DNA from: Kitasatospora arboriphila
Lineage (GTDB): Bacteria > Actinomycetota > Actinomycetes > Mycobacteriales > Mycobacteriaceae
Direction: 5' to 3'
DNA length: 64,000 bases
NCBI RefSeq assembly: GCF_000717275.1
Contig: NZ_JNYV01000011.1
Coordinates: forward strand, 124,001 to 188,000
Position 1 is the first letter of the stretch. The number at the start of each line of letters is the position of its first letter. Made by a program: the position numbers and the translations under genes. Positions 12,781 to 18,685 of this stretch are shown in pieces. Below the pieces are notes generated by a model. That model was not told where the DNA came from and did no database searches. It was given only the letters and a program-made list of their open reading frames with translations.

Positions 12781-12795
12781 TGAAAATGATTGTCA
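12781..12795 (+). promoter_or_regulatory. Zur-like box before the RiPP operon
   Basis: TGAAAATGATTGTCA is a near-perfect 7-1-7 Zur palindrome, 85 bases upstream of the precursor start and 19 bases after the binding-protein stop. It is the best match of the three in the window. Confidence 0.75.
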
Positions 12796-12880
12796 AATAG
12801 CCTAGCGTGAGTCCTGGCCGTTCGATGAGCGACCGATTCGGTTGCGATGCAGCTGAATTCACTACAAGCGAAGGAGATTC

Positions 12881-13003
12881 GTGAACGACAATGAGTTCTT
12901 CCGTTCCATCCAGGCGCCGGTGAGCCTGGCGACCCATTCCGCGGGCCACAGCAATGCGCTCGTCGAGAACCCGTTCGACGACGCACAGGATTCCGAGGAC
13001 TGA
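12881..13003 (+). CDS. Candidate RiPP precursor peptide (40 residues)
   Basis: A GTG-initiated 40-codon gene with a good ribosome site (AAGGAG, four bases before the start), first in the operon behind the Zur-like box. The peptide has an N-terminal part like a leader (EFFRSIQAPVSLA, residues 5-17). A small-residue segment THSAGHSN follows at 18-25, then an acidic tail, NPFDDAQDSED. It has no cysteine, so a YcaO enzyme could act only on Ser15, Thr18, Ser20, Ser24 or Ser38, giving oxazolines or oxazoles, or on the backbone as a thioamide. Two histidines between heterocyclisable residues would suit metal binding. Where the leader ends is unknown. A hairpin after the gene could raise its transcript level over the enzymes. 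No known precursor family is recognised. Confidence 0.65.
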   Translation: MNDNEFFRSIQAPVSLATHSAGHSNALVENPFDDAQDSED

Positions 13004-13034
13004 TAGGTCCTCGCATCACCTGATGTGTCAAGAG

Positions 13035-13074
13035 CCCGCGTGCCATTCGAGTGACGTCCCGGGTGGCACGCGGG
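13035..13074 (+). terminator. Hairpin between precursor and biosynthetic genes
   Basis: A perfect 11-base stem (CCCGCGTGCCA at 13035-13045 with TGGCACGCGGG at 13064-13074) and an 18-base loop, without a T tract. It probably attenuates transcription or protects the precursor message, as is common after RiPP precursor genes. Confidence 0.6.
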
Positions 13075-13095
13075 ACCGGATGAGAAGCGAGACCC

Positions 13096-16522: not shown

Positions 16523-17745
16523 ACCCGTTTCGCACATTCGTGGTCGCGCGCGCGATCTGCTGGGCGGGCAACGCCGTCACGCTGGTGGCGCTGCCTCTTC
16601 TCGTCTACCAGCAGAGCGGCTCGGCACTGCTGTCCGGTGTGACGTTTGCCGTCGAGTCGCTGCCCTATCTGCTGTTCGGGCTCTTCGCCGGCGCGGTGGC
16701 GGACCGGTTCGACCGCAAGTCCATCCTTGTTGTCGCCCAGATGCTGAGTGCAGTGGCGCTGGCGTCGATTCCGCTGGCGAATGTCGCTGGGGACGTCCTG
16801 ATCGTGCACGCCCTTACCGTTGCCTTCCTCGTGTCCACGCTGTTCGTGTTCTACGATGCGGCGTCGTTCGGGGTGGTGCCCGCTCTGGTCGGGCGGGACC
16901 GGATAGCCGACGCCACAGGAACATTGGTGTCCGTGGGTACCGTCATCGGGATTGCCGGACCGTTGCTGGGTGGTGTGGCGGCCACTGCGCTCAGTCCCGC
17001 CGGTGCGATCGCGATCGATGCATGCTGCTATCTGTCTGCGGCGGCACTCACCGCCACCATCGCGATTCCCCCGAACGCCGTCGAAGCCGTTCCGGGCCGT
17101 CGTATCTCGGACCAGATAGGTGAGGGGTTGCGGTACATCTGGCAGCAGCCGGTGGTGCGCGCATTGACTCTGGTGGGAATCGGTGTGAGCCTCGCCAACG
17201 GCGTGGTGGTCGGACTGATGGTGGTGGTGGGTGTCCGGCGACTGGGCCTGGGTGACGGCGACGCCCGACTGGGTGCTTTGTATGCGGCCACCGCGCTGGG
17301 GGCGTTCCTCATCAGCCTCGTCAGCGCAAAGATCCAGCGTGTCGTGGACACCGGGAAGATCACCCTCACCGGAATCGCCGTGTCCGCCGGGGCGATGCTG
17401 CTGTGGGCACAGACGCCCTGGTTTGTCGTCTCGCTGGTGACCCTGGTTGTGTACCAGGCTGCCAACACGATGATCATCGTCAACGGAATCGTTGTGCGGC
17501 AATCGATCACGCCCGACGAGTTGCAGTCGCGGGTGAATACGACGGCGCGAATGATCGCCATGGGCGGTACGCCGTTCGGCGCTGCGATGGGTGGGGCGGT
17601 GGCGCAGGTCGGCGGTGTCGGTGTGGCGGTGTCCGCCGGCGCGGTTGCCCTGCTGTGTTCAGCCTTCGTCGGCTGGCGGATGGGGGTCGCCCGCCTGCCG
17701 CTGCTCGTCGACCTCACACCGAGCGCCCACGGCAAAGGCGAGTAG
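16519..17745 (+). CDS. MFS transporter, probable exporter of the RiPP product
   Basis: A 408-residue major-facilitator permease with twelve predicted helices. The loop 2-3 signature GAVADRFDRK is present, and the C-half helices are rich in Gly and Ala. It resembles the enterobactin-exporter/macrolide-efflux branch of MFS. It is coupled to the YcaO gene by ATGA and closes the operon. Its last 87 bases overlap the convergent SagB-type gene. Export of the modified peptide, with re-import by the neighbouring ABC system, is the natural reading but is inferred. Confidence 0.82.
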   Translation: MNPFRTFVVARAICWAGNAVTLVALPLLVYQQSGSALLSGVTFAVESLPYLLFGLFAGAVADRFDRKSILVVAQMLSAVALASIPLANVAGDVLIVHALTVAFLVSTLFVFYDAASFGVVPALVGRDRIADATGTLVSVGTVIGIAGPLLGGVAATALSPAGAIAIDACCYLSAAALTATIAIPPNAVEAVPGRRISDQIGEGLRYIWQQPVVRALTLVGIGVSLANGVVVGLMVVVGVRRLGLGDGDARLGALYAATALGAFLISLVSAKIQRVVDTGKITLTGIAVSAGAMLLWAQTPWFVVSLVTLVVYQAANTMIIVNGIVVRQSITPDELQSRVNTTARMIAMGGTPFGAAMGGAVAQVGGVGVAVSAGAVALLCSAFVGWRMGVARLPLLVDLTPSAHGKGE

Positions 17746-18435
17746 TGGGACCTGGCTGCGCTGCAACGAGAGCATCTCGCTGATCTGGTTGTCATAGAAC
17801 CCGGATATCGCACAGCAGGCGAGGTCGAGTGCGGTGGCGATGAGGTACAGGTGTGCTGCAGCGAAGCCGGCATCGACATGCAAGGTGCGATAGTGCCGCT
17901 CGGAATATTTGGTCAGTGTCGCGTCGAGTTCACCGACGAGAATGACGACAACCGGAGCGCGTCGGGCGAACTGCGGTTGAACGAGACCCTGTGCGAGTGC
18001 GCCGCGTACATCGCCTGTTCTGCGCCGGAGCAACCGGTGGTGGACGCGGTCGAACTCGTACACACCCACGGGTATCTCGTCGAGTGTTTGCAGCGCAACC
18101 ACGTAAGCGGTGGTCGACGGTAGGCCACCGGCGCTGGGATGGAAAGTCAACAAGCGCTCCTCGCCGTCGCCGGTTCGCACGGTGCGCTGTGGACCTAGCG
18201 CCCACCGCAGCAACGCCGACAGGTCTGGGTGGCCGAGCGGGCCGTAGCTGTACCGCGAGCGCCGGTCGCGGAGGACGCCGTCGATCGGAACCGATGGCGC
18301 GTCGGAGGGTTCACTCAGCGTGATCACCCCGTCGCCCTCGGACAGCCGGATCGGCGACACGGGAGGGCCCGAGTCGGTGAGGGCATCGTGGACTGCCCGT
18401 GCGCGCTCGACTCTTGTACCCACCAGACCATCCAT
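17659..18435 (-). CDS. SagB/ThcOx-type azoline dehydrogenase (nitroreductase fold)
   Basis: A 258-residue flavin enzyme of the SagB/ThcOx group, which oxidises azolines to aromatic azoles with FMN. Landmarks are the substrate-loop start YGPLGHPDLSALLRWALG, FHPSAGGLPS, and the FMN-binding helix region LHVDAGFAAAHLYLIATALDL followed by a C-terminal AVGAR. The frame is open to 18669, but the chosen ATG at 18435 lies only 14 bases from the Zur-like palindrome. No ribosome site is visible, so translation may be leaderless. It is convergent with the MFS gene and shares a divergent promoter with the zinc-free L36 gene. Confidence 0.8.
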   Translation of the reverse strand: MDGLVGTRVERARAVHDALTDSGPPVSPIRLSEGDGVITLSEPSDAPSVPIDGVLRDRRSRYSYGPLGHPDLSALLRWALGPQRTVRTGDGEERLLTFHPSAGGLPSTTAYVVALQTLDEIPVGVYEFDRVHHRLLRRRTGDVRGALAQGLVQPQFARRAPVVVILVGELDATLTKYSERHYRTLHVDAGFAAAHLYLIATALDLACCAISGFYDNQISEMLSLQRSQVPLLAFAVGARCEVDEQRQAGDPHPPADEG

Positions 18436-18449
18436 GGCATGTAGTCTAA

Positions 18450-18464
18450 TGACAACGATTGTCA
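18450..18464. promoter_or_regulatory. Zur-like box between SagB-type gene and rpmJ
   Basis: TGACAACGATTGTCA is the core of a larger perfect inverted repeat: AATGACAACGATTGTCATT at 18448-18466, extendable by two more bases on each side. It lies between the divergent SagB-type and L36 genes. Because Zur control of cysteine-free ribosomal protein paralogues is well established, this box anchors the zinc interpretation of the island. Confidence 0.8.
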
Positions 18465-18562
18465 TTAGTTCGCCGGGCAGGTAGTGTCCTGAATGCACCG
18501 AAAGCCGGTCGCGTATAAGGCGCGCAGCAGGACACCCTGCCGCGCATGGACATTGGAGCACC

Positions 18563-18685
18563 GTGAAGGTCCGTGCATCACTCAAGTCGTTGAAGAACCA
18601 GCCCGGCTCGCAGGTCGTGCGCCGTCGCGGCAAGATCTTTGTGATCAACAAGGGGAACCCGCGGTTCAAGGCCCGGCAGGGGTAG
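18563..18685 (+). CDS. rpmJ: Ribosomal protein bL36, cysteine-free (C-) paralogue
   Basis: A 40-residue protein, too short for most gene callers, starting GTG with TTGGAG four bases before it. It begins KVRASLKSLKNQPG and ends with KGNPRFKARQG, the type-B L36 pattern. The zinc-ligating Cys/His residues of the normal L36 are absent. Such paralogues replace the zinc-binding protein in ribosomes when zinc is short, and their genes are classic Zur targets. It lies about 95 bases downstream of a strong Zur-like palindrome. No other alternative ribosomal protein genes (L28, L33, S14, S18) are adjacent. Confidence 0.88.
   Translation: MKVRASLKSLKNQPGSQVVRRRGKIFVINKGNPRFKARQG

What the first reader, a model, noticed from the sequence alone, without database searches (positions are those of the whole stretch)
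12781..18685. Putative Zur-controlled azol(in)e RiPP pathway, possibly making a zinc metallophore
Seen: a precursor-like 40-residue gene, leader-binding ThiF-like protein, CocE-type hydrolase, YcaO and MFS exporter in one tightly coupled operon; a convergent SagB-type dehydrogenase; Zur-like boxes in front of both transcription units; a zinc-free L36 gene on the shared promoter; and a siderophore-type importer next door with its own Zur-like box. Known: YcaO plus leader-binding partner plus SagB makes linear azol(in)e peptides; Zur represses zinc-starvation genes. Inference: the product is exported to capture zinc and is re-imported. I know of no described RiPP of this kind under Zur.
Basis: partly seen in the sequence, partly recalled or inferred. 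Interest (0 to 1): 0.95.

Follow-up and report, generated by a model that had tools for sequence, protein, structure and literature searches.

The report
Zinc-switched streptamidine-family peptide (zincophore) pathway
This Williamsia bacterium carries a gene set of the known streptamidine peptide family, and here and in 96 of 99 loci compared the peptide gene sits behind a DNA site that matches those of the zinc-starvation switch Zur, so these peptides of unknown function likely serve to scavenge zinc.

Summary
The 40-residue gene is a streptamidine-family precursor (NF040714, 54.7 bits, cut-off 40): the cluster is a Williamsia member of the ami family (PMC8442711), whose characterised product is an amidine, not an azole. 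That paper never names Zur and reports no zinc binding and no metal-starvation phenotype. New here: a matrix from 14 published Zur sites finds a box (16 bits or more) before amiA in 96 of 99 distinct loci (reversed matrix 1), in 15 named genera besides Williamsia, and before the importer gene in 74 of 79. Seven motif-B loci score 15-25 bits; 4 reach 16. In ten ami genomes 11 of 28 exact boxes lie at ami; several others precede metal-importer or zinc-free ribosomal-protein genes. AmiB is predicted to be RRE plus E1/ThiF. All 106 core repeats found have two His. Best reading: a Zur-repressed, exported and re-imported RiPP zincophore. Zur control is very likely; zinc carriage is probable but untested, against one published negative. 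Streptamidine may be the spent fragment.

The parts
8998..9783 (-). Importer ATPase (amiF-type)
   Evidence: ORF; homologues beside amiA in related loci
9780..10772 (-). Importer permease 2 (start not fixed)
   Evidence: ORF frame; homologues beside amiA in related loci
10772..11734 (-). Importer FecCD-type permease 1 (start approximate)
   Evidence: PF01032 240 bits
11779..11793 (.). Zur box, divergent importer promoter
   Evidence: 23.7 bits against the published-site matrix
11826..12761 (+). Importer substrate-binding protein
   Evidence: PF01497 68 bits; siderophore-binding relatives in the PDB, best YfiY 3tny, 64 bits
12781..12795 (.). Zur box before amiA
   Evidence: 25.8 bits
12881..13003 (+). 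amiA, streptamidine-family precursor; aligned core THSAGH within LATHSAGHSNALVENPF
   Evidence: NF040714 54.7 bits, cut-off 40; family comparison
13096..13809 (+). amiB, predicted RRE plus E1/ThiF-like partner protein
   Evidence: Predicted fold pLDDT 89.4; McbB and TruD matches
13806..15143 (+). amiC, CocE/S15-type hydrolase
   Evidence: TIGR00976 87.3 bits, cut-off 66.3; alignment to cocaine esterase
15140..16522 (+). amiD, YcaO-domain protein
   Evidence: PF02624 166 bits; TIGR03604 215.3 bits, just under its cut-off 219.25
16519..17745 (+). MFS exporter, EntS-like
   Evidence: TIGR00900 175 bits and EntS model 108 bits, both below cut-off
17659..18435 (-). amiE, SagB-type dehydrogenase, converging on the MFS gene
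   Evidence: TIGR03605 109 bits, cut-off 78.4
18450..18464 (.). Zur box shared by amiE and L36
   Evidence: 21.1 bits
18563..18685 (+). Cysteine-free type B ribosomal protein L36
   Evidence: NF002021 80.2 bits, cut-off 70

Best explanation
This is a Williamsia member of the streptamidine (ami) RiPP family whose precursor, dehydrogenase/L36 and importer promoters each carry a box that matches published Zur sites, and it likely makes an exported peptide that binds zinc and is re-imported when the cell is zinc-starved. Proposed steps, all inferred unless marked: zinc-loaded Zur represses the three promoters; in starvation AmiA is made; AmiB (RRE plus E1 fold, predicted) presents it to the YcaO protein AmiD; AmiC (hydrolase family shown by search) cuts after the small residue before the core and frees its amine; AmiD with AmiE forms an amidine and perhaps an oxidised ring; the MFS protein exports the product; two conserved histidines plus ring nitrogens bind zinc; the FecBCDE-type importer brings the complex back. 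Streptamidine itself, found only when the importer is intact (published), would then be the fragment left after intracellular zinc release.
For: Box before amiA in 96 of 99 distinct loci at 16 bits or more with a matrix from 14 published Zur sites, none from ami loci; reversed matrix 1. At 12 bits 98 of 99, reversed 6, 60 column-permuted matrices mean 1.6, largest 15. With the plain published consensus and at most 1 mismatch 57 of 99, shuffles 0.05, reversed 2. Boxes before the importer binding-protein gene in 74 of 79. amiE has its own box in most Williamsia/Rhodococcus-type loci, where it is a separate unit. Motif-B branch: 7 of 7 loci score 15.2-25.2 bits, 4 of them 16 or more, 6 at 90-98 nt before the conserved ALV; reversed matrix at most 11.5. 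In ten ami genomes 11 of 28 exact boxes are at ami, reversed pattern 0; of the 17 others, six precede metal-importer or zinc-free L33/L31 genes by library match. In this genome other boxes precede AztD (443 bits, cut-off 400) and an ArsR-Fur-family operon. Cysteine-free L36 on the shared promoter. Importer binding protein in 8 of 10 amiA-bearing family genomes and 0 of 3 congeners without amiA. 106 of 106 core repeats have His at position 6 plus position 1 (89) or 2 (17) (the filter asked for at least one His). Importer deletion abolishes product detection, and the dehydrogenase is essential though streptamidine is not oxidised (PMC8442711).
Against: Purified streptamidine showed no binding to zinc or six other metal ions by LC-MS, and a YcaO mutant of S. 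albidoflavus had no phenotype under metal starvation (PMC8442711). Streptamidine was made without reported zinc starvation, so strict zinc repression is not obvious. FecBCDE importers and the PDB relatives of the binding protein are mostly iron-siderophore systems, and a siderophore-interacting protein gene lies next door. Two amiA boxes score only 13.0 bits and L058, at a contig end, has none. Five of 79 importer genes lack a 16-bit box: L082, L083, L094, L111, L132. In this genome two exact boxes (L001, L003) stand beside no zinc gene that I recognise, and the L31 behind the L005 box is the cysteine-bearing form. Two family genomes with amiA show permease and ATPase hits but no binding-protein hit. 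At least half of the 99 loci are Streptomyces, so they are not independent. No expression, DNA-binding or metal data could be taken here.
Confidence: 0.62

Rival explanations
1. Zur controls the cluster, but the product is not a zinc carrier: a signal, a weapon against neighbours or a ligand for another metal (copper, cobalt, nickel) that is useful when zinc is short.
For: No zinc binding and no starvation phenotype were found for streptamidine (PMC8442711). Zur regulons elsewhere include genes outside transport (PMC7174638).
Against: A FecBCDE-type importer goes with amiA in 86 of 99 loci and its binding-protein gene has a box in 74 of 79; no antibacterial or antifungal activity was found, and six other metals were negative too (PMC8442711).
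Confidence: 0.2
2. An iron siderophore-like peptide: FecBCDE importer, EntS-like exporter and a neighbouring siderophore cluster point to iron.
For: Family names of importer and exporter models; PDB relatives; siderophore-type NRPS cluster from about 22.5 kb.
Against: No IdeR-type iron box (consensus recalled) with up to 3 mismatches in the window; boxes match Zur sites in 96 of 99 loci; iron assay negative for streptamidine (PMC8442711).
Confidence: 0.06
3. A peptide that stays in or returns to the cell as a zinc buffer or zinc-delivery peptide, not a secreted zincophore.
For: Streptamidine is only seen when the importer is intact (PMC8442711); one related locus (L052) sits beside a ZigA/CobW-like GTPase and an L36 homologue with a 19-bit box.
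Against: Exporter genes are part of the clusters: MFS here, an ABC pair in Streptomyces (PMC8442711).
Confidence: 0.07
4. The boxes belong to another Fur-family regulator or are chance AT-rich palindromes.
For: The genome's Zur candidate scores below the curated Zur and Fur cut-offs, so its name rests on gene neighbourhood.
Against: The same boxes stand before zinc or metal-importer genes in the same genomes; shuffles, reversed and permuted matrices find few.
Confidence: 0.05

Closest known systems
Streptamidine / ami family (Russell et al. 2021, PMC8442711)
   Same: Precursor family, amiB, amiC, amiD (YcaO), amiE (dehydrogenase), FecBCDE-type importer
   Different: MFS exporter instead of the ABC pair; amiE in a separate converging unit with cysteine-free L36; aligned core THSAGH (His at 2 and 6) instead of HLSATH (His at 1 and 6); three Zur boxes recognised here
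Coelibactin, Zur-repressed zincophore of Streptomyces coelicolor (PMC5472717, passages)
   Same: Zincophore cluster under actinobacterial Zur
   Different: Made by NRPS enzymes (recalled); here a ribosomal peptide with a YcaO enzyme
Methanobactin and captophorin copper RiPPs (PMC13097082, passages)
   Same: Metal-linked RiPPs
   Different: Copper, cysteine-derived groups, MNIO enzymes (partly recalled); here zinc-type control, no cysteine, YcaO enzyme
Klebsazolicin (named in PMC8442711)
   Same: YcaO, E1-like partner and dehydrogenase; amidine ring
   Different: Also azole heterocycles; an antibiotic (recalled)

Membership tests
Streptamidine (ami) RiPP family | Precursor of the network-1 family, motif A | tested here: met
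   NF040714 54.7 bits, cut-off 40
Streptamidine (ami) RiPP family | amiB-amiC-amiD with amiE | tested here: met
   amiE is in a separate converging unit
Streptamidine (ami) RiPP family | FecBCDE-type importer amiF1-F4 | tested here: met
Streptamidine (ami) RiPP family | Two ABC transporters amiT1-T2 (major architecture only, not all members) | tested here: not met
   MFS gene in the exporter place
Streptamidine (ami) RiPP family | Amidine-bearing product | not testable with these tools
   Needs mass spectrometry and NMR
Zur regulon | Operator matching published Zur sites | tested here: met
   25.8, 23.7 and 21.1 bits for the three boxes; training sites 19.7-27.8
Zur regulon | Zinc- and Zur-dependent expression | not testable with these tools
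   No expression data
Azol(in)e RiPP (TOMM) | SagB-type dehydrogenase | tested here: met
   TIGR03605 109 bits, cut-off 78.4
Azol(in)e RiPP (TOMM) | SagD-type YcaO cyclodehydratase | tested here: inconclusive
   TIGR03604 215.3 bits, cut-off 219.25
Azol(in)e RiPP (TOMM) | Ser/Thr/Cys-rich core | tested here: not met
   No Cys in 39 distinct segments; here LATHSAGHSNALV has one Thr and two Ser; the same is said of the family in PMC8442711
Zincophore | Secreted ligand that binds zinc and feeds a dedicated importer | not testable with these tools
   Genes for export and import present; streptamidine negative for zinc in print

The most novel reading that the evidence does not exclude
The whole streptamidine family, reported from over 230 species, is a ribosomally made class of zincophores under Zur: a YcaO-modified, histidine-bearing peptide that includes part or all of the conserved HSNALVENPF segment is exported, binds zinc and is re-imported, and streptamidine is the spent fragment left inside after zinc release, which explains why it binds no zinc and is lost when the importer is deleted.
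Probability: 0.35. Interest if true: 0.92.

Novelty: new variant of a known kind. Interest (0 to 1): 0.82.

Why it matters
Streptamidine-like clusters are reported from over 230 species with no known function, and metal tests failed (PMC8442711). A conserved Zur box says when to look (zinc starvation) and which metal to test, so an open question becomes a simple experiment. If the product carries zinc, it would be the first RiPP zincophore that I know of, and would show that regulator boxes can assign a metal to a peptide cluster, a need stated in PMC12971057 (passage).

Tried and rejected
Iron control: no IdeR-type box (consensus recalled) with up to 3 mismatches in the window. The 25125 match is inside an ABC-transporter frame and was set aside. 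AmiB by sequence alone gave only a sub-threshold hit, so its fold was predicted. A gene divergent from amiA in L046 and L052 looked like a beta-propeller to me but matched nothing in NCBIfam or Pfam; not used. A plasmid search with AmiD gave 10 records, all under 60% identity; not followed. Importer-only genomes: G384 has a broken precursor copy, no AmiD match in its genome, but keeps permease/ATPase hits and a perfect box; G513 has a 42% binding-protein match, no amiA match and only a 14.6-bit box. Two examples are too few to argue piracy.

Rows dropped before the count of 99: of 110 stretches (window plus L042-L150) L042 and L060 had no AmiD hit; in L047, L090, L106, L127, L136 and L140 my motif filter found no precursor; L071-L073 repeat L064-L066. 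L042, L047 and L060 do show a box near their precursor match; the other five were not judged. The filter asked for an ALV-like motif with a His within 16 residues before it, and the core count for [AS]L[VI].NP, so one His and those letters are partly given. Start codons were mis-called where the box itself contains an ATG; avoid start codons. Permease plus ATPase were found in 86 of 99 loci, and in 23 of 26 with full flanks; the misses are L052 (a Peripla_BP_2 protein lies at 17.9-19.1 kb), L057 and L061, both from genome G081. The importer box was judged only in the 79 loci with a binding-protein hit. The background count used every third locus. The matrix: 12 of the 23 M. smegmatis table rows, those at zinc-linked genes and smtB-zur, most of them predicted sites, plus 2 C. 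glutamicum sites.

Papers: PMC8442711 parts 1-3 of 5 plus passages; PMC2823685, PMC5472717, PMC13097082 and PMC12971057 passages; PMC7174638 passages and section 10; all others only as search listings.
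Full report
What is there. The window comes from a Williamsia-like genome (AmiD 97-98% identical to two W. muralis records). On the plus strand a precursor gene, amiB, amiC, amiD and an MFS gene follow each other, the last four with 4-bp overlaps. A SagB-type dehydrogenase (amiE) converges on them, divergent from a cysteine-free type B L36 gene. 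Upstream lies a FecBCDE-type importer. Boxes stand at 11779-11793, 12781-12795 and 18450-18464.

What it is. The precursor passes the streptamidine-family model (54.7 bits, cut-off 40). Russell et al. (PMC8442711; parts 1-3 of 5 read) described this family in over 230 species and isolated streptamidine, a dehydrated HLSATH with an N-terminal amidine. Deleting amiB, amiC, amiD, amiE or the importer abolished production. They found no metal binding, no metal-starvation phenotype and no antimicrobial activity. Their text contains 'zinc' once and 'Zur' not at all. Here the exporter is an MFS protein rather than an ABC pair, amiE is in its own unit, and the aligned core is THSAGH.

Are the boxes more than chance? 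I collected 110 stretches: the window, 29 from sampled genomes (19 of 394 class genomes and 10 of 201 family genomes have a precursor match, own genome included in both) and 80 named loci (which kept the best 80 of 203). After dropping 11 (listed under Tried and rejected) 99 distinct precursor upstream regions remained. With the published actinobacterial core and at most 1 mismatch 57 of 99 have a box; dinucleotide shuffles give 0.05, the reversed pattern 2. With a matrix from 14 published M. smegmatis and C. glutamicum sites (PMC7174638, PMC2823685), 98 of 99 reach 12 bits (reversed 6; 60 permuted matrices mean 1.6, largest 15), 96 of 99 reach 16 bits (reversed 1) and 61 of 99 reach 20 bits (reversed 0). 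Background 400-bp windows in every third locus reach 16 bits in 35 of 1411, importer promoters included. The commonest box, TGAAAATCATATTCA (18 of 99), fits the S. coelicolor ChIP motif tGaNNatSatNNtCa (PMC5472717) letter for letter. Record titles name 15 genera besides Williamsia; 50 of the 99 are named Streptomyces. In 23 representatives that I chose, the T/A-rich flanks of the published 21-bp palindrome are present although the matrix did not use them, and conservation falls off outside.

Other promoters. The importer binding-protein gene has a box of at least 16 bits in 74 of the 79 loci where it was found; L082, L083, L094, L111 and L132 lack one. amiE carries a box of 15-24 bits in the Williamsia and Rhodococcus-type loci where it is a separate unit, but only 7-10 bits in L069 and L070; in L065 it is the box nearer L36. 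It has none in L050 and L059, where it lies behind the importer, nor in L075-L077, L083, L087 and L132, whose gene order I did not check. The seven motif-B loci, a branch with two YcaO genes, score 15.2-25.2 bits, four of them 16 or more, six at 90-98 nt before ALV and L168 at 246 nt; the reversed matrix reaches 11.5. By plain pattern with at most 1 mismatch only L162 and L164 show it.

Is it Zur? In ten of the 28 genomes with a precursor match (about 57 Mb) the exact core occurs 28 times, the reversed pattern never; 11 of the 28 are at the ami locus, in 9 of the 10 genomes. Of the 17 others I looked at ten. Six precede a metal-importer gene (two at L173, one each at L176, L177, L179) or L33 and L31 genes without cysteine (L184); the metal-importer matches are below curated cut-offs, and for L176, L177 and L179 only the first 110 residues were searched. 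L178 looks like an L177-type binding protein but was not run; L172, L180 and L183 showed no zinc gene that I recognised; seven were not examined. In this genome exact boxes occur at eight places: three at ami, one before AztD (443 bits, cut-off 400), one before an ArsR-Fur-family operon next to a glycyl-tRNA synthetase frame (ArsR and synthetase named by eye), one between a cysteine-bearing L31 and a lipoprotein frame, and two (L001, L003) beside nothing zinc-related that I recognise. PMC7174638 lists the same synthetase and smtB-zur pair. The Fur-family protein itself scores below the curated Zur and Fur cut-offs.

The peptide. All 106 core repeats have His at position 6 and a second at position 1 (89) or 2 (17); S and N before ALV and F after NP never vary in 39 distinct segments, E in 37; no cysteine. 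My filter asked for one His and for the ALV.NP-like letters, so these are partly given. A histidine that shifts by one residue but is not lost fits a metal ligand (inference), though ring chemistry could also demand it.

Mechanism. I infer a zincophore cycle: Zur derepression, AmiA modification by AmiB/D/E, leader removal by AmiC, export, zinc capture, re-import. The published loss of streptamidine on importer deletion, and the need for a dehydrogenase without an oxidised product, fit best if streptamidine is a fragment formed after re-import; Russell et al. themselves list hydrolysis of an oxidised part as one option. In the own family the binding protein is found (E at most 1e-40) in 8 of 10 amiA-bearing genomes; G433 and G546 show permease and ATPase hits but no binding-protein hit; three congeners without amiA lack it; G513 has a 42% match without amiA.

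Limits. Nothing here measures expression, binding or zinc. The negative published metal test stands. Loci are related by descent. Claims of absence in print rest, in an open-licence library only.

Noticed in passing
window 22503-63361: Siderophore-type NRPS cluster: two ABC exporter frames, an AMP ligase, a Lys/Orn N-monooxygenase, a 6993-aa NRPS frame, a Peripla_BP_2 binding protein, a 2074-aa NRPS frame and a siderophore-interacting-like frame (the ligase, monooxygenase and binding protein by Pfam; the rest by eye).
   Followed up: partly
window 8107-8985: Siderophore-interacting FAD protein (PF04954) converging on the importer ATPase; among L042-L070 found beside ami only in L065-L067.
   Followed up: partly
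window 18700-19659 (-): ATP-dependent DNA ligase-like frame next to L36 (named by eye, not searched).
   Followed up: no
L052:5301-8571: In another family the ami locus has a ZigA/CobW-like GTPase (154.5 bits, below cut-off) divergent from an L36 homologue (70% identical to the one here) with a 19-bit box between them, and an oligopeptidase-like frame nearby.
   Followed up: partly
L060 (genome G384): Precursor remnant with an in-frame stop, no AmiD match in the genome, yet a perfect TGAAAATGATTTTCA box and importer hits remain: a possible importer-only user.
   Followed up: partly
L057, L058, L061 (genome G081): Three ami copies in one 3.5-Mb genome, two of them near the two ends of one contig; the copy at L058 lacks the box.
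   Followed up: no
L046:8587-10089 and L052:8575-9828: Frames divergent from amiA that match no NCBIfam or Pfam family; may belong to this branch of ami clusters.
   Followed up: partly
L001 and L003 (own genome): Two further exact Zur-like boxes beside no zinc gene that I recognise.
   Followed up: partly
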